A program made the translations under genes and the position numbers. Positions 8,637-46,532 of a DNA stretch of 64,000 nucleotides are shown piece by piece. The stretch lies in assembly GCF_000143885.2 (NCBI RefSeq), contig NC_018580.1:1-64000 (forward strand), read 5' to 3'. The first letter of the stretch is position 1. The number at the start of each line of letters is the position of its first letter. This stretch comes from Gordonia sp. KTR9. Its GTDB lineage: Bacteria; Actinomycetota; Actinomycetes; Mycobacteriales; Mycobacteriaceae. The notes beneath the pieces are model-generated. The model was not told the origin of the DNA. It saw nothing but the letters and a program-made list of their open reading frames with translations, and did no database searches.

Positions 8637-8651
8637 GGCAGCTGTGCTGCT
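8637..8651 (-). repeat. GC-RNA-GC stem-loop, copy 1
   Basis: GGCAGC-TGT-GCTGCT on the plus strand; on the sense (minus) strand the loop is ACA. Five Watson-Crick pairs plus one wobble-type position. It lies 48 bases upstream of the start at 8589, within that gene's leader. Confidence 0.5.
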
Positions 8652-8661
8652 GCACGCCCGA

Positions 8662-8895
8662 TCAGAGGTCCCTGGTGCCCACCACACATGCCCGATCGAG
8701 CAGCCCGCACTCCTGGCAGAGGCTGGGTTTCGGCGCCATGCCGCCGTCATCGAGGAGGCGTAGTAGATGGTCTCTGCAGGTTGGCGTCAGGTCCGGATTG
8801 TGGCCGCATAGGGTGTTGGTCTCCACCAGCGCCACAGGTGGTTCCGCGTGGGCTAGTCCCCAACCACAGTGAGGTGTTCGATTTCGGCGTCGCAT
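8662..8895 (-). CDS. Zinc-finger mini-protein, 77 residues
   Basis: Contains CGHNPDLTPTCRDHLLRLL and CQECGLLDRACVVGT, giving several Cys/His pairs that could hold one or two zinc ions. GAGGA stands seven bases before the ATG at 8895; a GTG directly before it is too close to the ribosome-binding site. Function unknown; such small treble-clef or ribbon proteins are common in actinobacterial mobile elements. Confidence 0.65.
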   Translation of the reverse strand: MRRRNRTPHCGWGLAHAEPPVALVETNTLCGHNPDLTPTCRDHLLRLLDDGGMAPKPSLCQECGLLDRACVVGTRDL

Positions 8896-8946
8896 CACGT
8901 TTCCTCAACAGTCGGACGTTCACGGCGGGTATTTCCAGTGTGAAGC

Positions 8947-8983
8947 CTGCACCCCGGGCCTCAAGGTGAGGTCCGGGGTGCAG
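8947..8983 (-). terminator. Long hairpin after the zinc-ribbon gene at 9001
   Basis: CTGCACCCCGG (8947-8957) pairs with 8973-8983, and the stem continues inward with CCTCA/TGAGG, leaving a three-base loop. It lies immediately downstream of the stop at 9001 on the minus strand. Confidence 0.75.
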
Positions 8984-9000
8984 GGGGTGTGGCGGCGCAC

Positions 9001-9144
9001 TCAGGCGGCGCAGAGGTCGATCTGGAGGTCGCGGTAGCCGCAGGCCCCGCAGATGTAGGCGGCCTGGCGATTCTGGTCGTAACCGAACTCCAGCTCGAGG
9101 GCATCGTCGCAGCTGTCGACACAACCGTTGGGGCACACAGGCAT
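9001..9144 (-). CDS. 47-residue zinc-ribbon protein
   Basis: MPVCPNGCVDSCDDALELEF is followed by YICGACGYRDLQIDLCAA. Two CxxC-type knuckles (CPNGC and CGAC) separated by about 27 residues form a classical zinc ribbon. The start is fixed by GAAGGA six bases before the ATG at 9144; the longer upstream reading has no support. Role unknown. Confidence 0.7.
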   Translation of the reverse strand: MPVCPNGCVDSCDDALELEFGYDQNRQAAYICGACGYRDLQIDLCAA

Positions 9145-9190
9145 GAGGATTCCTTCGTTCGGAGTGACCTTCTTCTTCACGACGGTTTCC

Positions 9191-9211
9191 GACGGCAGCT
9201 CCGCTGCTGTC
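9191..9211 (-). repeat. GC-RNA-GC stem-loop, copy 2
   Basis: GACGGCAGC-TCC-GCTGCTGTC on the plus strand; sense loop GGA. The nine-pair stem has a single G-U position. It lies 47 bases upstream of the start at 9144, matching the distance of copy 1 from its gene. Confidence 0.6.
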
Positions 9212-9263
9212 TTGTCCTGAAACGACCTTGCTCGCAACACGAATGCCTCACCGGGTGTCTGAG

Positions 9264-9662
9264 TTAGACCTCCAGCACGCTGCCGCGGCGAAGCTCAGAT
9301 TCGGAGCAGCAGATGTCGTATCCGCCGACTGGGTAGCTGGGGTGGTCGCTGGCGATGATCCGGCAGTCCCAGTACCCGTCGTGACGGCGAGGGAGCGGCG
9401 CATCCGCAGCCGTCTGCTGAAACCGCAGGGGAAGGACCACAATGCGGTGACGGCCGGTGCACTCATGAGACAGACCGCCGGTGGTTCCGGTGCAGGGGTG
9501 GGTCTCGTACCAGGGCAGTTCGATCAGGTGGTGTTTGTCGACATGAGGGGTGGTCACCGGGAGCAGCGAGAGGCTGTGATTGGTGGAGCCGACCGGGGCC
9601 TGGGCCAGGCGGGCGGTTTCCTCGGTGTCGGTCTCGACGAGCTTGATGCCGTGGAATGTCAT
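9264..9662 (-). CDS. Hypothetical Cys/His-rich protein
   Basis: 132 residues. AAGGAG is nine bases before the ATG. The chain is rich in His, Cys and Thr (HPCTGTTGGLSHECTGRH, GYWDCRIIASDHPSYPVGGY, DICCSES), suggesting metal binding, but the spacing does not match a family I know. A GACCTTC/GAAGGTC hairpin at 9693-9711 lies in its leader. Confidence 0.6.
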   Translation of the reverse strand: MTFHGIKLVETDTEETARLAQAPVGSTNHSLSLLPVTTPHVDKHHLIELPWYETHPCTGTTGGLSHECTGRHRIVVLPLRFQQTAADAPLPRRHDGYWDCRIIASDHPSYPVGGYDICCSESELRRGSVLEV

Positions 9663-9692
9663 GGGGTGGTTCTCCTTACTGTGAACGCCATC

Positions 9693-9711
9693 GACCTTCT
9701 CCTCGAAGGTC
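9693..9711 (-). promoter_or_regulatory. Leader hairpin GACCTTC-TCCTC-GAAGGTC
   Basis: Perfect seven-pair stem with a five-base loop (GAGGA in the sense direction), 31 bases upstream of the start at 9662. It also overlaps the end of the upstream zinc-ribbon gene by two bases. Similar position to the three-base-loop family but a different loop. Confidence 0.45.
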
Positions 9712-9925
9712 AGACGTCGTTTGCGTGCTGGATCTCGTAGCCTTCGAGATCACCGATCTCGTCATCCCATGTCGAGGGATTTCCGCGCCAGTCATCACGG
9801 AGTCGCTGTCCGGATGCGTTGTACTCAGCGCCACAGGTGCAGGTGACATCGCTTTCGCCGGGCCACCGTTCAACGGTCGTTCCGCACTTCCCGCAGATCC
9901 ATGTCTTGGTCGGGCCTTCACTCAT
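9710..9925 (-). CDS. 71-residue zinc-ribbon protein
   Basis: Begins MSEGPTKTWICGKCGTTVER and continues VTCTCGAEYNASGQRLRDDW. CGKC and CTC form a compact ribbon, and the tract after it (NPSTWDDEIGDLEGYEIQ) resembles a conserved actinobacterial phage/plasmid mini-protein family that I recognise by pattern but cannot name. GGAGG lies about twelve bases before the ATG. Confidence 0.7.
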   Translation of the reverse strand: MSEGPTKTWICGKCGTTVERWPGESDVTCTCGAEYNASGQRLRDDWRGNPSTWDDEIGDLEGYEIQHANDV

Positions 9926-9991
9926 CAGGTCTCGTGTCCTCCATCGCCGGTAGGCGGCTGTGTCATGTCTTCTGTCGGAGCAGTTCCTGCC

Positions 9992-10006
9992 GGCGGCTAT
10001 GCCGCT
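9992..10006 (-). repeat. GC-RNA-GC stem-loop, copy 3
   Basis: GGCGGC-TAT-GCCGCT on the plus strand; sense loop ATA. It lies 67 bases upstream of the start at 9925. The flanking TTCCTGCCGGC is nearly repeated at copy 7. Confidence 0.55.
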
Positions 10007-10039
10007 GAGTTCCGAAACCGTCTAGCAGACATGAGAAGA

Positions 10040-10074
10040 AAGACCCGGTCCACCATCTCGGTGAACCGGGTCTT
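10040..10074 (-). terminator. Terminator of the gene at 10077
   Basis: AAGACCCGGT (10040-10049) pairs with ACCGGGTCTT (10065-10074), abutting the stop codon at 10077. Leftward transcription would meet it directly after translation ends. Confidence 0.7.
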
Positions 10075-10076
10075 GA

Positions 10077-10544
10077 TCAGTTCTTCAGGGCGATCGCGAG
10101 CGACTTCGCGGTGCGGTCGGTCACCCCGGAGTAGACGCGAGCGGAACCTTCGCCGGCGGTCAGGCCCCACCGGATCTTGGTGCGTGCCGATCCGGCGGCC
10201 CGGCGCACGATGCCTCGGCCGCCGGCGCGAACTACGTTGTCGTTGAGGTTGCGCAGGTTGCGCAGCTCCGCGAGCAAATCTCGGGCGCTGTAGTTGGGCA
10301 GACCTGTCACGGCCGGGGTGTCGAGAGCGTCCAGATGGACGATCAGATCTTCGATGTAGGCGCCGAACGCGGTGATCGTGTCAGCGTCGTTGGCGGCGAC
10401 GAACCTCTTGTAGCGTTCGCCACGAGCGTTCCACTCGGCGATGATGGTGCGTTGCTCGGCCTTCCAGGCTTGCAGGCCGAGGCCCAACTCCAGGCTGGGC
10501 TGCTCAGCGGTGCGGGAGATCGGCGCGGCGGTGGCAGTGGTCAT
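10077..10544 (-). CDS. Hypothetical helical protein, 155 residues
   Basis: AGGAA lies five bases before the ATG at 10544. The chain is largely alpha-helical (LQAWKAEQRTIIAEWNARGE, RDLLAELRNLRNLNDNVVRA) with a basic C-terminal domain (GRGIVRRAAGSARTKIRWGL). No motif I recognise. It is preceded by a leader stem-loop and lies divergently from a lipoprotein gene. Confidence 0.65.
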   Translation of the reverse strand: MTTATAAPISRTAEQPSLELGLGLQAWKAEQRTIIAEWNARGERYKRFVAANDADTITAFGAYIEDLIVHLDALDTPAVTGLPNYSARDLLAELRNLRNLNDNVVRAGGRGIVRRAAGSARTKIRWGLTAGEGSARVYSGVTDRTAKSLAIALKN

Positions 10545-10626
10545 GATGTTTCCTGTCGTCGAAGTCTGCCGAATCAATGTCCGATCAGGGCTGATCGTTA
10601 TGATTCTGTTCAGGTACTTCTCCGCA

Positions 10627-10643
10627 GGGCTGCTCCGCTGCCC
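10627..10643 (-). repeat. GC-RNA-GC stem-loop, copy 4
   Basis: GGGCTGC-TCC-GCTGCCC on the plus strand, one internal T-T mismatch; sense loop GGA for the minus gene starting at 10544, 83 bases away. It lies in a divergent intergenic region, so it could also serve the plus-strand lipoprotein gene. Confidence 0.5.
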
Positions 10644-10796
10644 ATGGGTCTGCCACGGGGAGACTCACGCAGAACGACGCCGACGAAACTCGCGAATGAG
10701 AATTGCCGCGGACTTGTCGACGACGTCCGCGCCGCGCGAGCTGAGGCCGTCACCATTCGCCGGACCCGCCACAACGGAAAGAGAGTTCTGAACCCC

Positions 10797-11339
10797 ATGC
10801 GGAAATCACTTGCGCTCTGCGGTTTCATCGCCTCGGCGCTACTGCTGGCTGGCTGCTCCGGAGGAGAGGAGTCGGCACCCACGACCTACACCCGGGAGAC
10901 ACCGACCTCGGCGGACTTCGACTGGGGCCAGGAGACCGAGACCACACCGGAACCGACCTACACCACCACGACCAACCGTTCGGTGCAGCAGCCTGCCGAC
11001 CGGGGAGTCTGCGAGGAAGCGTCCCCCTCCGTGGTTGCCCGCATCCAGAGGGACATCAAGCCCAACGTCTCCTTCTCGGGAAACATCGAGGGCGCCTGGA
11101 TGCTCATGCTCGATGATCCGTCGAATGAGTCCATCATCGTGGGAGGACTGACTGCCGACCTTCCCAGTAACTTCCAGCCCCTGGTGTGGGAGATCACGGA
11201 GAGGGACAAGATCTTCTCTCTCAGTCTCAATACCGCCGAGATCACCACCGGAAGTTACGCCGGTCAGCTAGAGCCTTCCCTCGCCGCCGCGGTCATGCAG
11301 GTACAACGGTGCGTCAGAGCTAACGCTGCAGTCGAGTAG
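10797..11339 (+). CDS. Secreted lipoprotein, 180 residues
   Basis: MRKSLALCGFIASALLLAGC is a textbook lipoprotein signal with lipobox LAGC. The mature chain has a Thr/Pro/Glu-rich stalk followed by a compact domain with two cysteines (GVCEEASPS and VQRCVRANAAVE). GGAAAGAGAG precedes the ATG. Likely anchored on the outer face of the membrane; function unknown. A related exported protein lies at 16952. Flanking minus-strand genes indicate an independent transcript. Confidence 0.8.
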   Translation: MRKSLALCGFIASALLLAGCSGGEESAPTTYTRETPTSADFDWGQETETTPEPTYTTTTNRSVQQPADRGVCEEASPSVVARIQRDIKPNVSFSGNIEGAWMLMLDDPSNESIIVGGLTADLPSNFQPLVWEITERDKIFSLSLNTAEITTGSYAGQLEPSLAAAVMQVQRCVRANAAVE

Positions 11340-11363
11340 GTCGACACGGTAGGTCGACACGAT

Positions 11364-11570
11364 CTACTCGGCGTCGAGTGTGGTGACAACGGTTCCGGCC
11401 TCGGTCGCGTACGCGCGGGCTTCGGTCTGTTCGGCGTCAGTGAAAGCGCGGATCTGGGCCGGTCGCCCCGGTGGGCGCACGATCAGGGTGAGGTCAGCGA
11501 GCTCGGCGCGAGCGCGTGTGGGCGCGCGGCGATCGCTGATTCCGCCAGCGGAATCGATGTTCTCGGTCAT
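11364..11570 (-). CDS. Hypothetical protein, 68 residues
   Basis: Begins MTENIDSAGGISDRRAPTRA; the second half contains FTDAEQTEARAYATEAGTVV. Its ATG overlaps the stop of the upstream gene (ATGA), so it is coupled to it. Not recognised. Composition suggests a small soluble helix-strand unit. Confidence 0.6.
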   Translation of the reverse strand: MTENIDSAGGISDRRAPTRARAELADLTLIVRPPGRPAQIRAFTDAEQTEARAYATEAGTVVTTLDAE

Positions 11571-11893
11571 GGCTCGTCTTTCGTGTCGTGCTCGGCCGGA
11601 TGGATCGCGACGGCGGCAACAGTGAGCGGGATCGCGGCGTGAGACAGCTCATTGGCACTCGACACGCGCACCGAGACCACCCCTAGCCACCGACCGTCGC
11701 TGCTCTGTAACCACGCGTGCTGCCAACCCTGCATCCGGTGCTCGAGGCGCGCGCCACCGGTCCTCACTCGCAGTGGGACCGTGTTCGCTGGAGTGAACAC
11801 GCCGGCGACGCCCGCCGCGGCCATGTCGATCCACACCGGTCGTGGCGGGTCGTACAACCGTAGCGTCCGGCGATCAGACCACTCCTCGAACAC
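11567..11893 (-). CDS. Hypothetical protein, about 108 residues
   Basis: Best-supported part runs from VFEEWSDRRTLRLYDPPRPV to HPAEHDTKDEP. The start is taken as GTG 11893 because a TAGACT -10-like element lies just upstream and nothing before it looks coding; alternatives are GTG 12001 or ATG 11995. Alternating beta strands dominate. Overlaps the next gene by four bases. Function unknown. Confidence 0.5.
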   Translation of the reverse strand: MFEEWSDRRTLRLYDPPRPVWIDMAAAGVAGVFTPANTVPLRVRTGGARLEHRMQGWQHAWLQSSDGRWLGVVSVRVSSANELSHAAIPLTVAAVAIHPAEHDTKDEP

Positions 11894-14035: not shown

Positions 14036-15031
14036 TCAGACGGTCGCGCCAAGCGCGGCGAGGACGCGGCCGCCGATCCAGCGGGCTGCGTCGACGGAGA
14101 CCGCGTTGCCGATCTGCTTCTTCACCTCGCCGACTGTGCCGGTGAAGTGATAGCTGTCGGGGAAGCCCTGTCCCCGGGCACATTCCCGGTTGTTGAGCAT
14201 GCGGAATCGCGGGCCGTCGGCGGTCAGTGTGGCGACGCCGTGGTGGTTCCCGCCGGCGGTGATGGTGGCGAGCGGGTGCTCGTCTGCTCGACGAGCTCGA
14301 GCGTTCCGGCGATAGGTCACCAGGTGCGGGGTGTCGAACTCGGTGATCTGTTCGATCTGATTCGAAACGTAGAGTCGACGAGTGACCGGCTTGCCAGGGT
14401 TGGTGTCCAGGATCGCCGCCGCGGTCTTTCGAGCGGGACGCTCGATAGTCAGATCCACGGCCCCGTCGCGAGTGAAGATCGCGAAGTAGCGAACCCGACG
14501 CTGCGCAGCCCCGACGTCGGCGGCATCGAGAATGAGGATCTGCTCGCGGTAGCCCAGCGCACGCATCCCATCCAGCCACCATGAGTACAGCGACCATGCT
14601 TGGAACTCGACGACGTTCTCGACGATGATCGCGTCGTACTGGTGAACCTCGGTGGCTGCGATGACCGCGAACGCGGTTGCTCGATCGATCGATCCGGGAT
14701 CAAGCCGGCGCATCTCCTCTGCTGCAGGGGGCTGTTTGCGGCCGCCGGAACGGGCATGCCACACGCACGAGGGCGACGCCCACAGGATGTCGGTCGACGG
14801 AAACGAGCGCCAGTCGACTTCGGACAGATTGGCGAGAATGTGTTCGGTGTCAGGATGATTCACCTGGTGTGTAGCGACGGCGACCGGCCAGTGGTTCGCC
14901 GCGACCTGGACCGACACGCCGGCTTGGGTCATTCCTTCGGAGCTACCTCCGGCGCCGCTGAAGATGTCGGTCATAGTCAGCGGTCCACCGGACAGCGACG
15001 GCCGCTGCGGATGGGTGAGAAACGTGGTCAT
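14036..15031 (-). CDS. C5-cytosine DNA methyltransferase
   Basis: 331-residue enzyme with the ordered motifs of the family: I (MTDIFSGAGGSSEGM, residues 20-34), IV with the catalytic cysteine in ASPSCVWHA (Cys89), VI (IIVENVVEF), VIII (AQRRVRYFAIF), a short target-recognition region with LATITAGGNHHGVATL, and X (QIGNAVSVDAARWIGGRVL). CAGGAG precedes the ATG at 15031. Motif IV has PSC in place of the usual PC, a variant seen in actinophage orphan methyltransferases. No restriction endonuclease is adjacent, so it is probably an orphan enzyme that masks plasmid DNA from host restriction. Confidence 0.9.
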   Translation of the reverse strand: MTTFLTHPQRPSLSGGPLTMTDIFSGAGGSSEGMTQAGVSVQVAANHWPVAVATHQVNHPDTEHILANLSEVDWRSFPSTDILWASPSCVWHARSGGRKQPPAAEEMRRLDPGSIDRATAFAVIAATEVHQYDAIIVENVVEFQAWSLYSWWLDGMRALGYREQILILDAADVGAAQRRVRYFAIFTRDGAVDLTIERPARKTAAAILDTNPGKPVTRRLYVSNQIEQITEFDTPHLVTYRRNARARRADEHPLATITAGGNHHGVATLTADGPRFRMLNNRECARGQGFPDSYHFTGTVGEVKKQIGNAVSVDAARWIGGRVLAALGATV

Positions 15032-15094
15032 CGACAGACTCCTGTGGTGTGTGGGTGAGCGAGATCGGCGCAAGATCGACGTGTGCGAAAAAGA

Positions 15095-15130
15095 GGGACC
15101 GCAACGCTGTGGAGCAAGCGTTGCGGTCCC
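15095..15130 (-). terminator. Terminator upstream of the methyltransferase
   Basis: A perfect 14-pair stem GGGACCGCAACGCT (15095-15108) with 15117-15130, followed in the leftward direction by TCTTTTTC. It ends the transcript of the gene at 15421 and separates it from the methyltransferase unit. Confidence 0.85.
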
Positions 15131-15166
15131 ATGTCCCGAACCGGATTGATTCAGGGGCGAAGTCCT

Positions 15167-15206
15167 ATCCGCAGCGCACCCGGTAGCGAGGAGGTGCGCT
15201 GCGGAT
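15167..15206. repeat. Perfect 14-base inverted repeat
   Basis: ATCCGCAGCGCACC (15167-15180) pairs with 15193-15206. It has no T-run and lies beside the terminator at 15095, so it may be a second terminator or a protein-binding site. The rest of the 15207-15420 interval shows no gene. Confidence 0.6.
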
Positions 15207-15420
15207 GAGGGGGATGTGAGAGCAGGTCGCGTGTTCGACGCGGTGTCTGATCGCACCCTCTTCGCATGACGGCGCTTAGACCGTCCGGTTGTCAGCGCGA
15301 GGCCAGCGACGATGATGGCCGAATCGGCATCGCAGCCCTGTCCTCACAGCCATTTCCGACGGGCGCTGTGCGCCTGTCCTTCGATATATCAACCGGCATG
15401 GATCGCCGGATACGAGCCCC

Positions 15421-16811: not shown

Positions 16812-16895
16812 GAGCTGCTGTTCCTTAGATGAGGTGAATGTCGACGGCCCGCCCAGTAGTGACTGGCGGGCGAGTTCTGTCGAGACATTCCCTGT

Positions 16896-16912
16896 CAGCG
16901 GCTGCGCCGCTG
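16896..16912 (-). repeat. GC-RNA-GC stem-loop, copy 5
   Basis: Perfect seven-pair stem CAGCGGC-TGC-GCCGCTG; sense loop GCA relative to the minus gene at 16811. The same 17 bases, plus CCCTGT before and C after, recur at copy 6. It also lies 40 bases before the plus-strand start at 16952. Confidence 0.65.
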
Positions 16913-17449: not shown

Positions 17450-17456
17450 AGCCATC

Positions 17457-20441: not shown

Positions 20442-21173
20442 TCAGAAGGGCACATCGACAGCCGCCTCTGCCAGGCTGATCGAGCGTGAGGGCTCGGCCG
20501 CGGTGGCCGCTGACTCGGACTGCTCAATGCCGTAGAGGTGGCGCAGAGCCCAGTGCTCGGCGATCATCCGATCGGTCTTTTCGTCGGACCAGAACAGCCG
20601 GAACGCAGTGTTGACTCCGCCGTCGGGGCTCCACACGATCAGAGTGGGGATTCCGGCACGCACCGCGGCATCAACGCAGCCCCAGGTGCCGCGCGAGCGA
20701 CCAATCTTCTTGGCGCGAGTCTTGGACACGGTGGGCATCGCGAGGAGTAGCCGCGGTCCTAGAGCGATCATCGCGGCGTTGCGCCGGTGCCCGGCCATCG
20801 CGCATTTGTCGAGTCCGCGATGTCGCGCCGGGCACAGATTCACCGTCTGTTCAGGACTGCCCGGGGCGAAGTCTGGCAGTTCGAACACGTGGGTGCTCCA
20901 TTGCGCGGGATGACAAACGGCTTCCCATCCGGGCGTGCGATCCGCCGCGGCCTGCCACACGGCTGTGTCAGCTCCGCCGGCGCCGCCATGGTCGAGCAGC
21001 AGCGGCGGCCGGTCGGCGGCCGGACTGGGTGTCAGGAGAATCCGCGCAGCGTTGAGCGCGAGAATGCCGGCCTCGGCCTGAGCGGAGGTGGTTGCGTGTC
21101 TGCAGCCGGAGGTCAGCACGCGAGTGCGACCGATGTGCTCGGAAGGGATTGAATAGCTTCGGTAGTCGGGCAT
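20442..21173 (-). CDS. SLOG/DUF2493-like protein
   Basis: 243 residues. GRTRVLTSGCRHATTSAQAE and LLLDHGGAGGADTAVWQAAA give the first strand and the glycine-rich GG..GAD nucleotide-binding turn typical of DUF2493 (YspA, a SLOG-superfamily Rossmannoid). Then VNLCPARHRGLDKCAMAGHR and GTWGCVDAAVRAGIPTLIVW, the usual final strand. SLOG domains bind nucleotides or NAD-like ligands and occur in defence and phage gene sets. AGGA lies five bases before ATG 21173. Ligand and role unknown here. Confidence 0.65.
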   Translation of the reverse strand: MPDYRSYSIPSEHIGRTRVLTSGCRHATTSAQAEAGILALNAARILLTPSPAADRPPLLLDHGGAGGADTAVWQAAADRTPGWEAVCHPAQWSTHVFELPDFAPGSPEQTVNLCPARHRGLDKCAMAGHRRNAAMIALGPRLLLAMPTVSKTRAKKIGRSRGTWGCVDAAVRAGIPTLIVWSPDGGVNTAFRLFWSDEKTDRMIAEHWALRHLYGIEQSESAATAAEPSRSISLAEAAVDVPF

Positions 21174-21245
21174 GGGGGTCCTCGCCTTCTCTGCGGGTCT
21201 GTCAGGGACGGACGCGTTCGGTTTGTCCACTGAGACAGCCCCTGT

Positions 21246-21262
21246 CAGCGGCTGCGCCGCTG
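21246..21262 (-). repeat. GC-RNA-GC stem-loop, copy 6
   Basis: Identical to copy 5 across 24 bases including the stem CAGCGGC-TGC-GCCGCTG; sense loop GCA. It lies 73 bases upstream of the start at 21173, between two minus-strand genes, so it can only serve the SLOG-like gene. Confidence 0.7.
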
Positions 21263-21925: not shown

Positions 21926-22378
21926 TCAGGCGAACGGGGCGTCGTTCTGCAGGGGCGCCTGCTCGACCGGTGCGCTCGCGGGTGCGGCCGCGGCGTTGTC
22001 GTCGGCGGCGTTGCGCTGGCGGCGCGCCGCGGTCTCCGCCTTGGTCTCCTCGAGCACGACGTTCTTGATCTCGTTGGTCGGCTCGTAGACGGTCTTGCCG
22101 TCACGCTTGAAGACCTGGGTGTAGGGCTCGTAGAACAGTCCCACCTTGGAACCGCGGACGATGTAGGCGTAGACGCCGTTGCCCTTGCCCTCGGGGATGT
22201 ACCCGGTCAACTCGATGTAGCGCGGCTGCGGCTCGGTCTGACCGTTGCGCACGAACTCTTCGGAGTAGGCCAGGTTGAGCTTGACGGTCTGCGAGCCGTC
22301 ACCGTTGGTGAAGAAGACCGGATCCCGGGTGAGGCGGCCGGTGACCTTGGCGAAGTTGTTGGCGTTGATCTGGGTCAT
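21926..22378 (-). CDS. ssb: Single-stranded DNA-binding protein
   Basis: 150 residues: an OB fold from FAKVTGRLTRDPVFFTNGDG through LAYSEEFVRNGQTEPQPRYI to EIKNVVLEE, then a short Gln/Ala-rich tail ending NDAPFA, which approximates the acidic SSB tail DDIPF that recruits partner enzymes. GGGAGAA precedes the ATG. It would coat single-stranded plasmid DNA during replication or after conjugative entry, and can suppress SOS in recipients in other plasmids. Shorter than the chromosomal actinobacterial SSB. Confidence 0.85.
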   Translation of the reverse strand: MTQINANNFAKVTGRLTRDPVFFTNGDGSQTVKLNLAYSEEFVRNGQTEPQPRYIELTGYIPEGKGNGVYAYIVRGSKVGLFYEPYTQVFKRDGKTVYEPTNEIKNVVLEETKAETAARRQRNAADDNAAAAPASAPVEQAPLQNDAPFA

Positions 22379-22569
22379 GATTTCTCCCGTGTGCTGTCCA
22401 GGATGTTCCTGGAGGTGTCGGATAGTCGACCCCGCCGACTGGTGTGCCCGTGGGGTTCATGTGTTCCTCCGGCGAAGGCTCTGCCTATCGCAGGTCTGTT
22501 GTTCTCTTCAGTTGTTCGTGATCGTCAGCGCGTTTCTAGCTGTGCGTTGGTTGGATCGCAGTTGTCCTG

Positions 22570-22588
22570 CCGGCAGCTCTGCTGCCGG
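22570..22588 (-). repeat. GC-RNA-GC stem-loop, copy 7
   Basis: Perfect eight-pair stem CCGGCAGC-TCT-GCTGCCGG; sense loop AGA relative to ssb, whose start is 192 bases away. Also 153 bases before the plus-strand gene at 22741. Preceded by TCCTG, as in copy 3. Confidence 0.6.
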
Positions 22589-25720: not shown

Positions 25721-25767
25721 AGCGAGGTCCAATCCCTGGGGGTCACTTTCTGTATGGATCCCCGTCA

Positions 25768-25780
25768 CCGGCTTCGCCGG
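25768..25780 (-). repeat. GC-RNA-GC stem-loop, copy 8
   Basis: CCGGC-TTC-GCCGG, five perfect pairs; sense loop GAA. It lies 48 bases upstream of the start at 25720, the same spacing as copies 1 and 2. Confidence 0.55.
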
Positions 25781-25954
25781 CTGATACCAGCCCTGCGCGG
25801 CTGGTGTGAGAGTTTTCGCTGAGACGTGGACACTGAATGAACTCCGTACCCGAGGTCCGGGGCTCGATCTCTCGTCCCATCAGGTCGTGACTACGGTTGT
25901 TGACTCGCCGGTGTGAGCAGACTCCGGAACCAAGACAGGGGAGGGTCTAAGGGG

Positions 25955-30550: not shown

Positions 30551-30649
30551 GGTCTGAGCTCCTTCGGACGGGCGAGCGGGGCGCGCGCGAGATGTAGACG
30601 CCGGTATGCGTCACGGCGCTGGACCTATGTCGGGTCCTGCATCTATCTC

Positions 30650-30670
30650 GGCGGCGGCTCCGCTGCTGCC
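30650..30670 (-). repeat. GC-RNA-GC stem-loop, copy 9
   Basis: GGCGGCGGC-TCC-GCTGCTGCC on the plus strand, nine positions of which two are G-U; sense loop GGA. It lies 100 bases upstream of the start at 30550. Confidence 0.5.
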
Positions 30671-32020: not shown

Positions 32021-32223
32021 TGCCAAACACGTCTTCCGTGGACGCGGTGCGTGACAATCCGAGCGCATGGTCCATGCTCTCCGCCTGAGAATCCGGGTCA
32101 GGCCGAGGGCTCCATTCGTCATCACTGTTATGGTGAGTGTTATTCATCAGACAATGCGGCAGCGACACCGTACCGCCATGTACCTGCATGAAGACAGCAT
32201 CCGGCGATGATGGGACAAACACT

Positions 32224-34614
32224 ATGGGGAAAGTAGGAATACTTACTGAGAAGCCCTCGGCGGCCCGCAACTTCGCCGCGGCGCTCGGCGGTATGAGCGG
32301 CTCGTTCGACGGAACCGAGTACGTCATCGTCAACGCTCGCGGTCATCTGCTGGAACTGAAAGATCCGTCGGAGATGGTCCCGGCGTCACTCGCCGAGAAG
32401 TACCGGAGTTGGGACCTGGAGCATCTGCCCTGGGATTCCGGCGACTTCCGCTGGGAACGCGAGATTCGCCGCAAGGTCTCGGGGAAGAAGTTGGTGACCG
32501 ACCCCGACGCCAAGAGTCTGCTCCAGGAGCTCAAGAAGACCCTGTCGAGCTGTGACACGGTGTGCAATGCAGCCGATCTTGACCCCACGGGCGAAGGGTC
32601 GCTTCTGGGCTGGGAGATTGTCGAGTTCCTGGGCCTCGAGGGTAAGAAGCTCGAACGCATGGAGTTTCTGGATGAGACGCCGGCGTCGTTGCAGAAAGCA
32701 TTCAAGGCCCGTCGCTCGGTGACATCGATCGAATCCGAGGGCGACTACCGCAAGGCTGACTTCCGGTCCAAGTGGGACATGCTCTCCATGCAGTTCACCC
32801 GCGTGGCCACGAAGGCATCGGGAGCAAGCACTGTCCTGCGCAACGGTCGACTCAAGTCGGCGATGGTCGTGATCGTCGGCGACGGCCTCGACGCGCACAA
32901 AAACTACGTGAAGAAACCCTTCTATGAGAACCGTTTTCGGGACGAAAACGGTGTCACCTACGCCGACCCCGAGGTCGATCGGTTCGAGAACAAGGCGGAT
33001 GTGCCGGGCGGGCTGGAGTCCTCACCGGTTGTTCATGACGGAGTCAGCCGCAAGAAGACCGCTCCGCCCCGGCTCATGGACCTAGCTGCCTTGTCCTCGC
33101 TCCTGTCCAAGAAAGGGTTTGGAGCGAAGAAGGTGCTGGAGACCTACCAGAAGATGTACGAGGCTCAGGTCGTCTCCTACCCGCGCACCGAGGACAAGTT
33201 CATCTCGATCGAGCAGTTCAACGAGCTGCTACCGCTCGTCGACCAGATTGCCGGGGTCGTCGGAGTCGACCCGGCCGACCTCAGTCATCGCGGACCGCGC
33301 AAGACCCACATCAAGTCAGGCGGCGCACACGGTGCCAACCGGCCGGGGCCCAATGTCCCCGCGAGCCTGGATGCCGTGGCAAAAGAGTACGGCGAACTCG
33401 GCAGAGAGATCTACGAGCTCCTCGCGAAGAACTACCTCACGATGCTCGCCCCGGACTATGAATTTGACCAGCACCGTGGACATGTCGAGAAGTACCCCAG
33501 CTTCGTCGGATCGCTGAACGTTCCCGCAGTGCTTGGCTGGAAGGGTGTGTTCGTCATCGAGGACGACGAGAACGAGGACAGCGACGAGGTCGCGCCGAAG
33601 GCCATCAGTTTGGGACAGGTGGCAGCGCCGTTCGTTCACGAGGGGTTCCCCAAACGGCCACCCCACCCGACGATGGGCTGGCTGATGAAGCAGCTCGAGA
33701 AGCGCAGCGTCGGTACCGGCGCCACGCGTACGAGCACCTACGCCGAGATCACCAACAACAGTGCCGGCAAAGCCCTGATGGTCGAGAAGAAGGGCAAAAT
33801 CACCCTGAGCCCGATCGGGGAACTCAACCACCGGATCCTGCCGGGTACACACATCGGAGACCTCACGATCACCGAGCAGGTGTTCGAACAGATGGCTCAG
33901 ATCGAGGCCGGCACCGGCGCTGCCGAGGACTTCCTGTCAGTTGTGGCCGACCTCGTCCGCGACGATCTCGCAACCATGAAGACCAACGCCGGGAAGTTGC
34001 CCCGCGAACTCACCGAGCGGACGGGCAAGGCCGGCTTGACTCGCGCAGCTGTCGAAGTCATCGATTTGCCGCCGGCACTTCACTTTCGACATGCGGACAA
34101 AGTCGCCACGCGCGCGAAGAGAGTGTTCGGTGGACATCGATTCACCGATTCGGAGGTGGCGAAACTGGTGGCCGGCGAGACCCTCGAGATCACAGCCACG
34201 AGCCCGAAGACCGGGAAGACTTACACCTGCAAGGGAAAGCTCGAATCCGGCGTGATGGACAAGGACGGGACGAAGTACCCGTACGTCAGTTTCAAACCTC
34301 AGTTCGAGGAACGCGCACCCCGAACGGATCTGGTCAGTGGGGTGTGGAAGGGCAAGCAGGTCTCGTTCAAGGCGCGCGGCTGGGGAGCCAACCCGCATTG
34401 GCCCGGCAAAGACTTCACCGACGAAGAGGTCATGAAACTCTTGGCCGGAGAGACAATCGAATTCGATGCCAAAGGAAAAACCGGGCGACCGTACCGGGCG
34501 AAAGGTGAACTGGGCGAGGGGACGTTCCAGGGGAACAAGACCTTCGGGTTTCGCCTCAAGCTCGATGATCGAAATTCGCCCCCGGGGACACGGAAGCGCA
34601 AGGTCGCAAAATAG
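32224..34614 (+). CDS. Type IA DNA topoisomerase
   Basis: 796 residues. The TOPRIM domain opens with VGILTEKPSAARNFA and has the acidic site NAADLDPTGEG (residues 115-125). The catalytic tyrosine is in AQVVSYPRTED (Tyr319), as in topoisomerase III/TraE-type plasmid enzymes. No zinc fingers follow; instead the last 170 residues hold two repeats (GGHRFTDSEVAKLVAGETLE and KDFTDEEVMKLLAGETIEF). Such enzymes resolve or decatenate plasmid DNA during replication and transfer. Start chosen at ATG 32224; the ribosome-binding site (GATGGGA) is weak. Confidence 0.9.
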   Translation: MGKVGILTEKPSAARNFAAALGGMSGSFDGTEYVIVNARGHLLELKDPSEMVPASLAEKYRSWDLEHLPWDSGDFRWEREIRRKVSGKKLVTDPDAKSLLQELKKTLSSCDTVCNAADLDPTGEGSLLGWEIVEFLGLEGKKLERMEFLDETPASLQKAFKARRSVTSIESEGDYRKADFRSKWDMLSMQFTRVATKASGASTVLRNGRLKSAMVVIVGDGLDAHKNYVKKPFYENRFRDENGVTYADPEVDRFENKADVPGGLESSPVVHDGVSRKKTAPPRLMDLAALSSLLSKKGFGAKKVLETYQKMYEAQVVSYPRTEDKFISIEQFNELLPLVDQIAGVVGVDPADLSHRGPRKTHIKSGGAHGANRPGPNVPASLDAVAKEYGELGREIYELLAKNYLTMLAPDYEFDQHRGHVEKYPSFVGSLNVPAVLGWKGVFVIEDDENEDSDEVAPKAISLGQVAAPFVHEGFPKRPPHPTMGWLMKQLEKRSVGTGATRTSTYAEITNNSAGKALMVEKKGKITLSPIGELNHRILPGTHIGDLTITEQVFEQMAQIEAGTGAAEDFLSVVADLVRDDLATMKTNAGKLPRELTERTGKAGLTRAAVEVIDLPPALHFRHADKVATRAKRVFGGHRFTDSEVAKLVAGETLEITATSPKTGKTYTCKGKLESGVMDKDGTKYPYVSFKPQFEERAPRTDLVSGVWKGKQVSFKARGWGANPHWPGKDFTDEEVMKLLAGETIEFDAKGKTGRPYRAKGELGEGTFQGNKTFGFRLKLDDRNSPPGTRKRKVAK

Positions 34615-39715: not shown

Positions 39716-39750
39716 AGAGCCTCGATGCAGAACCTCTGCATCGAGGCTCT
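39716..39750. terminator. Terminator before the transfer operon
   Basis: Perfect 15-pair stem AGAGCCTCGATGCAG (39716-39730) with 39736-39750 and a five-base loop; 33 bases past the stop at 39683. Confidence 0.85.
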
Positions 39751-39928: not shown

Positions 39929-39947
39929 CGAGGGTGGGATTGTGCCG

Positions 39948-42449: not shown

Positions 42450-45400
42450 CATCTGGAAAACGGGGGGTTTCAGTGGGGGTGATGATGACAGCGCAGTTCG
42501 TGGGCCGCAGGTCGTTGGCCGCAGTAGTGGCGGGATTGCTCATTCTGTTGGCGGCCGCCGCGGTGATCGCGGCATCGGCAGGAGCAGCCGGAGCGATCCC
42601 TGCCGATGCCAGCGCGAAGTACGGTCGCGGATACACCGAACTAACCGAGAAGAACATCGACAAGCTGTGTCCGGACGCAACGACCGACAGCGAAACGGAA
42701 GACCCGGAGTCAACCGACACCGCCGATCCCGGACTCGATGAACCGATCGTCGGTAGCGACTGCTCGATTGACGACGAGAAGCTGTGGGAAGCGGTTGAAA
42801 CCTGCATGGACTCAGACAAGAAATCTGAGCCAGACCCCGCGAAACTCGACGAGGCCGACTTCCTGGACTGCATGGCCGGCAAGGGATTCGGTGAGGAAGA
42901 TCCCGCATCGGAGGACGACGAGGAAGCTCCCAGCGACGAGGAGGCGGTTGCAAACCTGTCCTTGGCTCGGCTCAGCTCGTCACTGACCAGTTTCTACGTC
43001 AATGCGCTGTCACCGTTGGGCTCCAACGAGTCCGAAGAGAACACGCCCGAGGCTGAGGCTGAAGGAGCAGACGCCACTGAGACGAAAGCCGGCCTGGAAG
43101 CGTGGGGACCGATTCTGGGGAAACCAGGTAGCGCAGGATCGTTCGTCGGCAGCCCGGACCGGAGCAAGCAGGAAAGTACCGACTGGCTCTTCAGTGCAGC
43201 CGACGCGGCGAACGTGTCGAGCGTGAACTACTCCGCATTCAACCGCGACACCAGGAACTCCGGCGAGAACCTGACAGCAGTACCCCAGGCAGAATCCGCC
43301 GGGTCCGTGGATACCGGCGTCGAAGGGTATCTGCTCTACGGCGCCATGCTCTCCGGGATGGGTTTCGATACGGTCATGGCCGCCGACGGTGGTGCCGCAG
43401 CGGGACGAGGCCTCTCAGGCCTGCTGATGATGGGCGGATACGCGGGCGCAGGATTCGTCGACGTCGCATTCGACTCGGTTCTCTCGGTACTGCAGTGGAC
43501 TAACCCCTTCCGCTTCATGGTCGACGCGGTCAGCGACAACACCAACGAAACCTTCACCGCGGGAATGGAAGGCAACGCCGAGGAGCCACCGGGAGCGTTC
43601 GACGGGCTGCGTGAGTTCTTCGGGACTGTCTACGACGCCATGGTCAAGCTCGGGTGGATGGTGACCATCCCGATGTTCCTCGCGATGACCGTCGCCGGCA
43701 TGCTGCTGCTGCGAAAGTTCGACACGGGCAACAAGATGAAAGCCCTGATCATTCGCATCGCGTTCCTCGTTGTGGGACTACCGCTGCTCGGCACCAGCTA
43801 CACCGCAGGCCTGGAAGCCATGCACGGCGCCTCCGGAGACACGGCGAATGCCCAAGCCACCAAGGTTGTGCTCAGCACGTACGTCGATTTCGAAGCCTGG
43901 GTCAACGGCCCGCGCCTCCAACCACCGACGGGGGAGAAGAGCAACGGCGAGTTCTGGTGGAACGAGGATGACGATGCGCCCAACGGCGCTACCGCGGCGG
44001 TAGCGCGAAAACTGGCGCTCAACATCAACTCCGGCAACCGACCCGTGTGGTCCAGCTTCAGCGACACCACCATCAGCAAGGGCACAGCAGACGGTAACGA
44101 CACCACCTGGGCTTCATCGGTGAGCGGCGAGAATGCCTCGGGCCAGCAGACAGGCAATTCGGCGGCGGAGGAGAACAGCGACAGCAAGATCTTCACCTCC
44201 ACGATGGAGCTGCTCAACAAGTACCGCAACGGTGACACAGTCAGTGCCGGCGGTTTCGAGTCGAGCGTCAAGGCCGGGCTGATCAAGGAGATGGAGAAGT
44301 ACAAGGGTTCTCCGATGGAACAGGAGACCCGCGAAACGATCGCCTCGTGGTTCCAGGATCTGGCCTCGCCGGAGAGTCTGTCGGCAATGACCGGCGCGGA
44401 AGTCAAGGAGCTGAAGAACCCCCTGATCGACGTGGCCGATGGGGCCAGCTTCACAGCGACGCGGGACCCGAGCACCGAGTACTCGATCATGACCTTCGGC
44501 ATGGGACAAAGCAGCGAGTCGTGCCTGAACTCCACGGTGGTCAATCACCGGTGGGATGGCAAGGCGGACACCGACGCCCGTACGGCGTGCAACATGTCCC
44601 CGCTGGCCATGTACAACTACCTGAACACCTCGTTCGGACCGACCAGCATGAACGTCTACACCCCTGGCCAGACGACGAGCTCGTGGGCCAGGGAGGCCCA
44701 CGCGAGCGTCACTGCGATCGGCACCGGTCCCGCTCAGTTCATGTACTGGTTCTCGGCGATGACCATGCTGTTCTCATTCGTGATCATCGGTCTGGCCTAC
44801 GCCATGATGATGATGATCTCTTCGTTCAAGCGGGGCATCCAGCTGATCGGAGCGGTCCCGTTCGCCACCCTCGGCTTCGTTGCCGGTATCGCCAAGTGCG
44901 TGATCTACACCGCGGCAATGTTTCTCGAGATTCTGGGCACGATCTTCATCTACAAGGTAGTCCAGGAGCTAATCGTGGTCGTCCCAACGATCCTTGAGCG
45001 CCCACTGGCCGATCGGTTGGCAGACGGGGTATCGGAAGGAACCCGAGTCGCGGCAGCAACAGGAACCGCCGGCGTCCTGAGCTTGGCGGGTGAGAACAAC
45101 CTGCACACAGTGGTGCTGATCATCACGGCGATCAGCTCCGCGGGTCTGATCATGTTCACGATGATGGCCCTGAAGATCCGCAGGTCCTTGCTCGATGGTG
45201 TCGATCAGGCGGTGACGCGTCTGGTCAACAAGTTCATGGATACACAGGCATCTGGCGGTATGGATCCGGGTCAACCCGGGGCGTTGCGACAGGGCATTTC
45301 TCGCGGCGTGGGTATGGCCGGAACCTCGATGCTCGTCGGCGGCGGCCTCGGTGGCGACGGCGGAGATATAGGCGGCGATTCTGACGGAACCGGCCGCGAC

Positions 45401-46300
45401 GGTGGTGGCGCAGGCAACCCCGGAGTACCCGGCGCCGGTGACGGGTCGATGAGCGTGAGCAAAGACGGAACGCTTCTCGATAACGGAGGCAATCCCGTCA
45501 CCGCAGACGGGTCCGCGGGAGGACAGCCGCTCACAGCCGCCGACATGATGCCGGTCGACGCCGCCACCGGCAACGTCCACGACGGGACGGGAGCGCCCAT
45601 CCTGGGCGAGGACGGATCCCCGCTGGCGTCGGAGGATGTGGCCGGATTCGACGGTCAGGGGCGAATGCTCGGAGACAACGGCGAGGTTCTCATAGACGCC
45701 AACGGTAACGAGCTGACGAGCCAGCCAGCTGCAGCAGCAGCCTCCCGGCTCGCGGGGGATCGTCAGGTGGCCGCCGGTGTTCTCAGTCGCGGACTCAGCG
45801 ACTTCTCCAGTGGCGCGCCGGCAGGGACGCCCAGCCCATCGGCGACACCAATGGGGCCTCAGCCCGCAGCGCCAGTCGAGCACGCCGGGCCGAACCGCCA
45901 AGTGGGAGGTCCGCTGCGCTCCGATGTCATCGCGAACGGAGGAGGCAGCGACGACAGTTCGGTCCTGGGGCACACCGCAGCGCTGACTGCCTCATCGATG
46001 ATCTCCCAGCGGCTCGCAGGCCCACAGCGCCGGCGCCCGCCCGAGGCGATGGGCCCTTCCGGGAGAGGCGCTGGATCGGCAGGCGGTAACCAGGGTGGCG
46101 GCGGCGCCAGCGGTTCGATGGGCGGACAGGCTCCCCAGCGCCGCAGCGGCGGTGCCGGGACGGCGGCGATGTCGACCGCGGCTCTTTCGGCGGCCGCGGT
46201 GAATCAGCGGTCGGACGGCCAAGGCTCGCGGGTGCAGAATCCGAGCACCGGAGAGCGTGGAGATGGTGCGCCGATACCACGGCCACCTCGAGACAACTGA
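42446..46300 (+). CDS. VirB6-like large membrane protein
   Basis: 1284 residues. N-terminal signal-like helix (LAAVVAGLLILLAAAAVIAA), an acidic extracellular region, then multiple transmembrane helices: LGWMVTIPMFLAMTVAGMLL, IRIAFLVVGLPLLGTSYTAG, FMYWFSAMTMLFSFVIIGLA, FATLGFVAGIAKCVIYTAAM and TVVLIITAISSAGLIMFTMM. The last 330 residues are Gly/Pro/Ala rich and disordered. This is the TrbL/VirB6-type channel component of Gram-positive type IV secretion systems, with an unusual extracellular loop of about 300 residues between helices. Coupled to the VirB4-like gene by ATGA. Confidence 0.7.
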   Translation: MTSGKRGVSVGVMMTAQFVGRRSLAAVVAGLLILLAAAAVIAASAGAAGAIPADASAKYGRGYTELTEKNIDKLCPDATTDSETEDPESTDTADPGLDEPIVGSDCSIDDEKLWEAVETCMDSDKKSEPDPAKLDEADFLDCMAGKGFGEEDPASEDDEEAPSDEEAVANLSLARLSSSLTSFYVNALSPLGSNESEENTPEAEAEGADATETKAGLEAWGPILGKPGSAGSFVGSPDRSKQESTDWLFSAADAANVSSVNYSAFNRDTRNSGENLTAVPQAESAGSVDTGVEGYLLYGAMLSGMGFDTVMAADGGAAAGRGLSGLLMMGGYAGAGFVDVAFDSVLSVLQWTNPFRFMVDAVSDNTNETFTAGMEGNAEEPPGAFDGLREFFGTVYDAMVKLGWMVTIPMFLAMTVAGMLLLRKFDTGNKMKALIIRIAFLVVGLPLLGTSYTAGLEAMHGASGDTANAQATKVVLSTYVDFEAWVNGPRLQPPTGEKSNGEFWWNEDDDAPNGATAAVARKLALNINSGNRPVWSSFSDTTISKGTADGNDTTWASSVSGENASGQQTGNSAAEENSDSKIFTSTMELLNKYRNGDTVSAGGFESSVKAGLIKEMEKYKGSPMEQETRETIASWFQDLASPESLSAMTGAEVKELKNPLIDVADGASFTATRDPSTEYSIMTFGMGQSSESCLNSTVVNHRWDGKADTDARTACNMSPLAMYNYLNTSFGPTSMNVYTPGQTTSSWAREAHASVTAIGTGPAQFMYWFSAMTMLFSFVIIGLAYAMMMMISSFKRGIQLIGAVPFATLGFVAGIAKCVIYTAAMFLEILGTIFIYKVVQELIVVVPTILERPLADRLADGVSEGTRVAAATGTAGVLSLAGENNLHTVVLIITAISSAGLIMFTMMALKIRRSLLDGVDQAVTRLVNKFMDTQASGGMDPGQPGALRQGISRGVGMAGTSMLVGGGLGGDGGDIGGDSDGTGRDGGGAGNPGVPGAGDGSMSVSKDGTLLDNGGNPVTADGSAGGQPLTAADMMPVDAATGNVHDGTGAPILGEDGSPLASEDVAGFDGQGRMLGDNGEVLIDANGNELTSQPAAAAASRLAGDRQVAAGVLSRGLSDFSSGAPAGTPSPSATPMGPQPAAPVEHAGPNRQVGGPLRSDVIANGGGSDDSSVLGHTAALTASSMISQRLAGPQRRRPPEAMGPSGRGAGSAGGNQGGGGASGSMGGQAPQRRSGGAGTAAMSTAALSAAAVNQRSDGQGSRVQNPSTGERGDGAPIPRPPRDN

Positions 46301-46366
46301 CGTCCCGGGCCGGGGCACACCTCGCCGCCTGCGTCACGACGCGAGCGCGAAGTGGACGCGAGAAAC

Positions 46367-46453
46367 ATATTCTTGGCAAGTTATTGCGAAGGGCTCGTAT
46401 GTTGCCCCTACCTCGGCATGAAGCGTGATGTATATTCTTGGTGAGTTACTATC
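46367..46453 (+). promoter_or_regulatory. Tandem ATATTCTTGG promoter-like repeats
   Basis: ATATTCTTGGCAAGTTAT at 46367 and ATATTCTTGGTGAGTTAC at 46432 are near-identical copies 65 bases apart, upstream of the gene at 46553. A shorter match, TATTCTTG, lies at 63366 before the last gene. They may be two promoters of one class or activator sites. Confidence 0.5.
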
Positions 46454-46517
46454 GGGGCGGTTTAAGTCTTCCGCGCGCACCCGACCGGGACGTCACGAAG
46501 TGCCCACACACGAAGCT

Positions 46518-46532
46518 ATCGGCGGAGCCGAT
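46518..46532 (+). repeat. GC-RNA-GC stem-loop, copy 10
   Basis: ATCGGC-GGA-GCCGAT, six perfect pairs; here the adjacent gene is on the plus strand and the sense loop is again GGA. It lies 21 bases upstream of the ATG at 46553, just before AAGGAG. Confidence 0.6.

What the first reader, a model, noticed from the sequence alone, without database searches (positions are those of the whole stretch)
8637..46532. A dispersed family of leader stem-loops with purine-N-A triloops
At least ten GC-rich hairpins (8637, 9191, 9992, 10627, 16896, 21246, 22570, 25768, 30650, 46518) have a three-base loop closed by GC. Read on the strand of the adjacent gene, the loops are ACA, GGA, ATA, GGA, GCA, GCA, AGA, GAA, GGA and GGA: all purine-N-A. 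Eight lie 21-100 bases before a start codon, three of these at 47 or 48 bases; copy 4 lies 83 bases off and copy 7 is an outlier at 192. Copy 10 is on the other strand and keeps the rule relative to its gene. This orientation dependence points to RNA rather than DNA recognition and suggests a plasmid-wide post-transcriptional regulon with an unknown binder. Three copies sit between divergent genes, so their orientation is assumed.
Basis: partly seen in the sequence, partly recalled or inferred. Interest (0 to 1): 0.85.

Follow-up and report, generated by a model that had tools for sequence, protein, structure and literature searches.

The report
Hairpin signals before plasmid entry genes
On two related soil-bacterium plasmids, a short hairpin of one fixed design sits in front of a dozen or more genes each in one block, always on the same strand and mostly where the usual promoter signal is missing, which suggests an undescribed switch for genes a plasmid may need when it settles in a cell.

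Summary
Nine of its ten copies belong; copy 10 does not. Contig C1 (182 kb, resembling Gordonia pGKT2) has 12 copies (10 in the window), the related Rhodococcus plasmid pGS01 has 15. On the coding strand each is a 7-bp stem with apex GC-RNA-GC, then one base, C and four purines at a fixed distance. A fixed rule finds 11 minus and 0 plus intergenic hits on C1, 14 and 0 on pGS01; shuffles give 0.4 and 0.5. Stems covary. Seven of ten orthologous pairs differ in loop yet stay R-N-A. By the same rule 22 of 164 minus-strand and 0 of 149 plus-strand leaders carry it. 'RNA, not DNA' rested on copy 10 and is not established. Genes behind the element are about four-fold depleted of the sigma-70-type -10 motif TANNNT. 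I read it as the expression signal of these genes, slightly more likely acting at transcription initiation than post-transcriptionally, in function like the establishment-gene sequences of pLS20, which has a relaxase of the same Pfam family. Binder, start site and oriT are unknown.

The parts
8630..8652 (-). element 1: hairpin CAGCAGC-ACA-GCTGCCG + CAGAG
   Evidence: (28.8 bits)
9187..9209 (-). element 2: CAGCAGC-GGA-GCTGCCG + CGGAA
   Evidence: (34.7 bits); orthologue pGS01 61202
9985..10007 (-). element 3: CAGCGGC-ATA-GCCGCCG + CAGGA
   Evidence: (33.3 bits)
10620..10643 (-). element 4: GGGCAGC-GGA-GCAGCCC, A.A mismatch at pair 3 kept in pGS01, flank shifted by one base
   Evidence: (24.1 bits)
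   Evidence: (26.6 bits)
15088..15290 (-). conserved non-coding leader behind element 15368, ending in an intrinsic-terminator-like hairpin with a T-run (about 15088-15130), before the methyltransferase gene
   Evidence: 80% identical to pGS01 67848-68050; gaps that break the frame and the terminator read from the alignment
16890..16912 (-). element 5: CAGCGGC-GCA-GCCGCTG + CAGGG
   Evidence: (35.9 bits)
21240..21262 (-). element 6: CAGCGGC-GCA-GCCGCTG + CAGGG
   Evidence: (34.6 bits)
22565..22587 (-). element 7, before the ssb-like gene: CGGCAGC-AGA-GCTGCCG + CAGGA
   Evidence: 34.7 bits; orthologue pGS01 73045
25760..25782 (-). element 8: AGCCGGC-GAA-GCCGGTG + CGGGG
   Evidence: (26.6 bits)
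30646..30668 (-). element 9: CAGCAGC-GGA-GCCGCCG + CGAGA
   Evidence: (29.8 bits)
21926..22378 (-). gene behind element 7: ssb-like
   Evidence: Pfam PF00436, 20.6 bits, below the cut-off of 26; the gene at the matching place in pGS01 is annotated single-stranded DNA-binding protein
14036..15031 (-). gene behind the 15368 element: C-5 cytosine DNA methyltransferase
   Evidence: Pfam PF00145, E 1.4e-31
54430..57063 (+). relaxase of the MobL family, in the plus-strand transfer region
   Evidence: Pfam PF18555, E 1.7e-55

Best explanation
The hairpins are the cis-acting expression signal of a block of plasmid genes that look like establishment (entry) genes. Shown: the element (7-bp stem, apex GC-RNA-GC, one base, C, four purines) is under selection, occurs as a family on two related plasmids, sits on one strand about 35-195 nt before start codons (farther, 328 nt or more, before the methyltransferase gene), and the genes behind it are depleted of the sigma-70-type -10 motif. 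Inferred: the element stands in for the ordinary promoter. A hairpin extruded from supercoiled DNA, or formed while the DNA is single-stranded during transfer, lets transcription start at or just after the purine run, so that the A-rich, T-poor stretch after it is the transcribed leader, and the genes are on mainly when the plasmid enters a cell. The polymerase or helper protein is unknown.
For: Enrichment over shuffles and strand bias. Stem pairing where pairing was not required: 4.17 of 5 variable pairs in 23 minus-strand intergenic hits against 2.2 of 5 in the other 20 of 43 hits. Covariation: 31 cells changed on both sides against 10.0 in shuffles. Flank not used in choosing copies by script: C at +11 in 23 of 24, purines at +12 to +15 in 21-23 of 24. 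TANNNT 6 in 5,365 nt upstream of 24 element-bearing genes against 238 in 52,515 nt upstream of 284 others, Poisson p = 1e-5; TA followed by NNN and A, G or C is only about 1.2- to 1.5-fold lower. From -60 to -8 T exceeds A (0.224 to 0.176); at +17 to +45 A exceeds T (0.290 to 0.143); in 181 control leaders A and T are about equal except in the last 30 nt before the start (0.235 to 0.163). T-runs lie about 10-70 nt before the hairpin in 8 of 30 against 4.7-6.2% of random windows of C1, coding included. At copy 177123 the divergent gene starts about 90 nt beyond the hairpin centre, so read-through cannot serve it, and no TANNNT is seen in the printed stretch. A terminator-ended non-coding stretch follows element 15368 on the same strand in both plasmids, as expected if transcription starts nearby.
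Against: No transcription start has been mapped. Leaders without TANNNT can use other sigma factors or read-through: 7 of 12 C1 copies have a minus-strand gene, or the contig end, on their upstream side. Inside the block the -10 contrast is smaller: minus-strand leaders without the element have 3.0 TANNNT per kb. The mirror pattern A-NNN-TA is also about two-fold lower. Two orthologous gene pairs have the element on one plasmid only (C1 182014 and pGS01 43854). No cognate polymerase was found; the one family search was uninformative because its controls did not ring either. In phage N4 the GNA hairpin is on the template strand; here the R-N-A loop is on the coding strand. 'Establishment genes' rests on one ssb-like and one methyltransferase gene; nine of the ten proteins scanned have no Pfam match.
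Confidence: 0.4

Rival explanations
1. RNA leader regulon: the hairpin is transcribed and a plasmid or host RNA-binding factor, or the ribosome, reads the R-N-A loop and purine run to control translation, stability or attenuation.
For: R-N-A loop and purines read on the coding strand; position in leaders; A-rich, T-poor downstream leader; loop rule in ten orthologous pairs; a conserved non-coding leader with a terminator stands between element 15368 and its gene in both plasmids, which would fit attenuation or a small RNA.
Against: Few promoter signatures upstream of the hairpin; A.C exceeds G.T on the coding strand (11 to 4, p = 0.12); none before plus-strand genes of the block (0 of 23); no Rfam match in the window at gathering scores.
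Confidence: 0.33
2. Single-stranded DNA signal on the transferred strand: hairpins fold on the entering strand and prime second-strand synthesis or recruit proteins, without being promoters.
For: All on one strand, in one block, beside an ssb-like gene. GC-GNA-GC is a known very stable DNA mini-hairpin (recalled; listing). In pLS20, whose relaxase is also PF18555, the transferred strand is the non-template strand of the establishment genes (PMC8708921 section 4.1).
Against: oriT and transferred strand unknown here; consistent placement before start codons is not needed for priming sites; 7 of 24 loops begin with A, not G.
Confidence: 0.13
3. Double-stranded operator: a dimeric plasmid repressor binds the imperfect palindrome, as Reg does at its motifs on p576 (PMC8708921).
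For: Inverted repeat with conserved core; regulon-like spread; flank adds asymmetry.
Against: Stem bases change in compensating pairs, which a fixed operator does not predict; few promoter boxes beside it.
Confidence: 0.1
4. Chance GC-rich hairpins in a GC-rich plasmid.
For: Loose triloop hairpins are only about two-fold enriched.
Against: The full element is 11 and 14 against shuffled means of 0.40 and 0.52; orthologues keep it.
Confidence: 0.01

Closest known systems
EGeRS1 establishment-gene regulatory sequences of pLS20-family Bacillus plasmids (PMC8708921: abstract, results parts 1-2 of 3 and section 4.1 read)
   Same: Repeated regulatory sequence with inverted repeats upstream of several operons of one plasmid region, no recognisable sigma-A promoter in the one studied, presumed establishment genes on the strand opposite to the transfer operon, relaxase of Pfam family MobL (PF18555) in both (21% identity over 233 aa).
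   Different: EGeRS1 is 420-750 bp with 62-95% identity; here only about 25-35 nt are shared. The GC-RNA-GC pattern with flank is absent from pLS20 (0 hits in 65,774 bp, both strands). Host phylum differs.
Frpo / ssi single-stranded promoters of F-like plasmids (PMC11541004, passages read)
   Same: Folded DNA element upstream of ssb and other leading-region genes on one strand.
   Different: Frpo carries -35 and -10 boxes in a folded duplex; here the stem is 7 bp and -10 boxes are depleted.
Phage N4 early promoters for virion RNA polymerase (PMC4496689, passages read)
   Same: GC-rich heptamer flanked by inverted repeats, 3-base loop; N4 heptamer centred at -11; here the loop centre lies 11 nt before the first conserved purine.
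   Different: The N4 hairpin is read on the template strand; here the R-N-A loop is on the coding strand. No such polymerase was found (one uninformative search).
Start-associated sequences (SAS/ESAS) of cluster K mycobacteriophages (PMC3203893, passages read)
   Same: Short repeats before many genes, about half with inverted repeats, nearly all in one orientation, in phages of a related host, unknown function.
   Different: SAS is one 13-bp sequence (GGGATAGGAGCCC); ESAS repeats are 17 bp of conserved sequence with a variable spacer.

Membership tests
EGeRS1 | conserved 400-750 bp sequence | tested here: not met
   only about -7 to +25 around the loop is conserved; pattern absent from pLS20
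EGeRS1 | several copies upstream of operons in one plasmid region | tested here: met
   fixed rule: 22 of 67 minus-strand leaders of the block, 0 of 97 outside it; block limits set after seeing the hits
EGeRS1 | no constitutive sigma-A promoter | tested here: inconclusive
   TANNNT depleted; not assayed
Frpo | -35 and -10 boxes in a folded stem | tested here: not met
   7-bp stem; TANNNT in 5 places over 30 aligned 253-nt stretches
Frpo | transferred strand is the template | not testable with these tools
   oriT unknown
N4 early promoter | 3-base loop, GC-rich hairpin at a fixed distance from a start | tested here: inconclusive
   geometry matches, start site unknown
N4 early promoter | GNA-type hairpin on the template strand | tested here: not met
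   R-N-A on the coding strand in 24 of 24 aligned copies, which were chosen on that basis; the fixed-rule scan of both strands gave 25 minus and 0 plus intergenic hits
N4 early promoter | cognate virion RNA polymerase | tested here: inconclusive
   PF00940 not found, but no control rang
SAS/ESAS | GGGATAGGAGCCC near the start codon | tested here: inconclusive
   not seen by eye in the printed leaders; no search was run

The most novel reading that the evidence does not exclude
A hairpin-type promoter class in an actinobacterial conjugative plasmid: sigma-70-independent transcription of entry genes that starts eleven bases from the centre of a 3-base loop, read by an unknown polymerase or co-transferred factor, as in phage N4 but with the purine loop on the opposite strand.
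Probability: 0.2. Interest if true: 0.88.

Novelty: new variant of a known kind. Interest (0 to 1): 0.62.

Why it matters
How establishment genes of Gram-positive conjugative plasmids are switched on briefly in a new host is open; for EGeRS1 the authors state that the mechanism is unknown (PMC8708921). Here the candidate signal is compact (about 25 nt) and present in at least 27 copies on two plasmids with natural compensatory variants, so it can be tested with small constructs. If it is a promoter it would be a hairpin promoter outside phage N4 and F-type plasmids; if it is an RNA element it would be a plasmid-wide regulon with an unknown binder.

Tried and rejected
Generic triloop enrichment: weak. 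Viral contigs: 9 and 2 stretches with exact matches to two sub-type patterns, judged chance from their contexts. Relaxase search: 1 of 301 family genomes and 1 of 59 genus genomes, own only. Both genome-contig scans found no relative. A neighbouring protein (window 20442-21173) was found in 1 of 401 genomes, own only. The model over 301 genomes gave hits at E up to 0.3 in 207, mostly chance level. I fetched 20 of the listed places; 3 carry the same AGTTGGCGGAGCCAAC leader (L025, L037, L038) and the other 17 I judged chance or undecided from flank and place. Streptomyces plasmid with the nearest other relaxase (L024, 42 kb of 639 kb): best model hit only 15.7 bits. Prescottella (L015) and Gordonia terrae (L016) plasmid stretches: no model hit with E up to 10. 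N4-like polymerase: uninformative. Energy models do not separate the strands: RNA parameters favour the template strand in 13 and the coding strand in 7 of 30; DNA parameters 11 and 11. A consistent outer stem or alternative pairing was looked for by eye and not found in all copies.

Rows left out when alignment A1 was made: from the C1 list, intergenic R-N-A hairpins at 4219, 25280, 46525, 109498, 122152, 167772, 167816 and 167859; from the pGS01 list, 24945, 35562, 68153, 142516, 176561, 192882, 204513, 220946 and 225901. The choice was by eye on place and flank; 10635, 30660 and 80045 were added although they fail the five-pair rule. repeat the test with fixed rules. In one search window 9137-9240 was counted as intergenic because the likelier start of that gene is near 9141. 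One search counted elements on minus-strand genes only, so its zero for plus-strand leaders was built in; one search replaces it (22 of 67 against 0 of 23, p = 6e-4; all leaders 22 of 164 against 0 of 149, p = 4e-7). The ten orthologous pairs were found among copies already chosen for R-N-A. Gene calls are from my own script, not a published caller.
Full report
What the window is. The window is C1:1-64000 of a 182,454-bp contig in a 5.89-Mb genome with four contigs. The contig carries a MobL relaxase (PF18555), a plus-strand run of large genes syntenic with the transfer region of Rhodococcus fascians pGS01, a protein with weak, sub-cut-off matches to actin-like families and a P450 gene 99.8% identical to one on Rhodococcus sp. 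DN22 plasmid p5. Size and content fit Gordonia sp. KTR9 plasmid pGKT2; that name is my recall, no call names it. PMC5640721 (passages read) cites laboratory transfer of pGKT2 to other actinobacteria, and PMC4446434 (passages) notes alpA/alpC homologues on it.

The observation. All ten hairpins are there. Nine (copies 1-9) share one design on the minus strand. Copy 10 does not: it lacks the flank, scores 13.4 bits (E 4.5), is not kept as an R-N-A hairpin in pGS01 and has its own -10-like TACTAT. I add 15368 in the window and 177123 and 182014 outside it. On pGS01 I count 15: 12 chosen from the scan and three first met as model hits at 73045, 61202 and 64204. The 27 best model hits over 16 stretches of C1, pGS01 and two other plasmids are all on the minus strand; 23 of them are training copies, three are new members and one (L021:705-748) lies in a gene. 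DN22 p5 has two copies, before orthologues of the genes behind 177123 and 182014.

The design. In 24 aligned copies, 12 from each plasmid, the two innermost pairs are always C-G and G-C, the loop is R-N-A, and outside anything the script selected for, position +11 is C in 23 of 24 and +12 to +15 are purines in 23, 23, 23 and 21 of 24. The 24 were selected for R-N-A and mostly for pairing, so I repeated the test without pairing: the bare pattern GC-RNA-GC-N6-C-RRRR hits 23 minus-strand intergenic places with a mean of 4.17 of 5 variable pairs formed, and 20 other places with 2.2 of 5 (one of the 20 is element 9201, counted as coding by my gene call). A combined rule gives 11 minus and 0 plus intergenic hits on C1 and 14 and 0 on pGS01, against shuffled means of 0.40 and 0.52 for both strands together, maximum 3 in 100 shuffles for each. 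Covariation: 31 cells changed on both sides against 10.0 shuffled, score 0.537 against 0.179.

Orthologues. Ten gene pairs carry the element on both plasmids at the same place; an eleventh (9999 and 62968) has an extra gene in C1. In seven of the ten the loop differs (for example ACA/GGA, GCA/AGA, AGA/GAA) and all stay R-N-A. Stems change in compensating ways (177123 AGTTGGC/GCCAACT against 27393 CGTCGGC/GCCGACC). Two pairs have the element on one side only: the gene behind C1 182014 has none in pGS01, and the gene behind pGS01 43854 has none in C1.

Where it is. With the fixed rule 22 of 164 minus-strand leaders and 0 of 149 plus-strand leaders of the two plasmids have it (Fisher p = 4e-7). 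In my block (C1 170-182 and 8-31 kb; pGS01 23-80.5 kb; limits set after seeing the hits) it is 22 of 67 against 0 of 23 (p = 6e-4), outside the block 0 of 97 and 0 of 126. In its own genome the 11 hits with E up to 0.3 are on C1; the best elsewhere is E 0.55 on the chromosome-sized contig. Three genomes of other genera carry the AGTTGGCGGAGCCAAC form before small genes (L037 and L038 before an orthologue of the C1 176677 gene, L025 before another), so the element is not confined to these plasmids.

What it replaces. TANNNT, the usual actinobacterial -10 (recalled), occurs 6 times in 5,365 nt upstream of 24 element-bearing genes and 238 times in 52,515 nt upstream of 284 others (1.1 against 4.5 per kb; Poisson p = 1e-5). 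Within the block, minus-strand leaders without the element have 3.0 per kb and plus-strand leaders 5.9. TA is somewhat rarer overall (16.6 against 23-27 per kb), yet TANNNA, TANNNG and TANNNC fall only about 1.2- to 1.5-fold while TANNNT falls 3- to 5-fold; the mirror pattern ANNNTA falls about two-fold. Composition flips at the element from T-rich to A-rich. At 177123 the divergent neighbour starts about 90 nt from the hairpin centre.

A telling case. Between element 15368 and the methyltransferase gene both plasmids have about 200 nt of conserved sequence (80% identity). The alignment has gaps that break any reading frame and ends in a hairpin GGGACCGCAACGC...GCGTTGCGGTCCC followed by TCTTTTT or TTCTTTTT, an intrinsic-terminator pattern on the same strand. 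So transcription very likely runs away from this element and stops before the gene unless something lets it through: a small RNA or an attenuator. This supports a transcribed leader after the hairpin; it does not say whether the hairpin itself is in the transcript.

How it might work. The coding strand, the mRNA and possibly the transferred strand have the same sequence, so the loop rule alone cannot choose between RNA and DNA. For initiation at the element: -10 depletion, composition flip, the purine run at fixed distance and the lack of any other conserved block upstream. For RNA: the same purine run and loop on the coding strand, and the leader of 15368. A.C against G.T (11 to 4, p = 0.12) and energy models are too weak to choose the strand. 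I give initiation 0.40 and RNA 0.33.

Comparison. The pLS20 relaxase is also PF18555 (E 4.1e-112), 21% identical to the window's over 233 aa. pLS20 has inverted-repeat regulatory sequences before several operons, no sigma-A promoter in the one tested, and a transferred strand that is not the template of its establishment genes (PMC8708921, read in part; oriT and relaxase in PMC5313138, passages). It is the closest functional relative, not a member: the motif is absent there. Frpo (PMC11541004, passages) and N4 early promoters (PMC4496689, passages) each fail a defining feature; SAS/ESAS (PMC3203893, passages) differ in sequence by eye. I found no description of this element in the listings (needed all six terms and returned two unrelated papers).

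Limits. Gene calls are my own script. The function of the block is inferred: one ssb-like and one methyltransferase gene are recognised among the genes behind elements, and nine of ten proteins have no Pfam match. No expression data, no oriT and no binder were available.

Noticed in passing
C1:166.6-169.9 kb (L017:2600-5900), outside the window: A 3.3-kb stretch without called genes, about 890 nt of it 79% identical to an unannotated part of pGS01, with long inverted repeats; one sub-threshold Rfam match only (sodF_sRNA, 28.7 bits against 46). Candidate large structured RNA, oriT or replication origin.
   Followed up: partly
window 15088-15290: Conserved non-coding stretch with a terminator between element 15368 and the methyltransferase gene; possible small RNA or attenuator.
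   Followed up: partly
window 22481 and pGS01 72958: A second, short-stemmed copy of the pattern overlaps a Shine-Dalgarno-like CCGGAG about 100 nt before the ssb-like gene on both plasmids.
   Followed up: no
L037:10014, L038:10031, L025:10031: The AGTTGGCGGAGCCAAC leader with an extended conserved stretch stands before small genes in three genomes of other genera, in two of them 21-24 nt after a terminator-like hairpin with a T-run.
   Followed up: partly
window 39716-39750: A perfect 16-bp hairpin with an ACC loop lies about 209 nt before the plus-strand gene at 39942; not part of this family.
   Followed up: no
pGS01 83879-88209 and 215164-217535: Two places of pGS01 match the window's topoisomerase gene (32188-34614) at about 77% DNA identity.
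   Followed up: no
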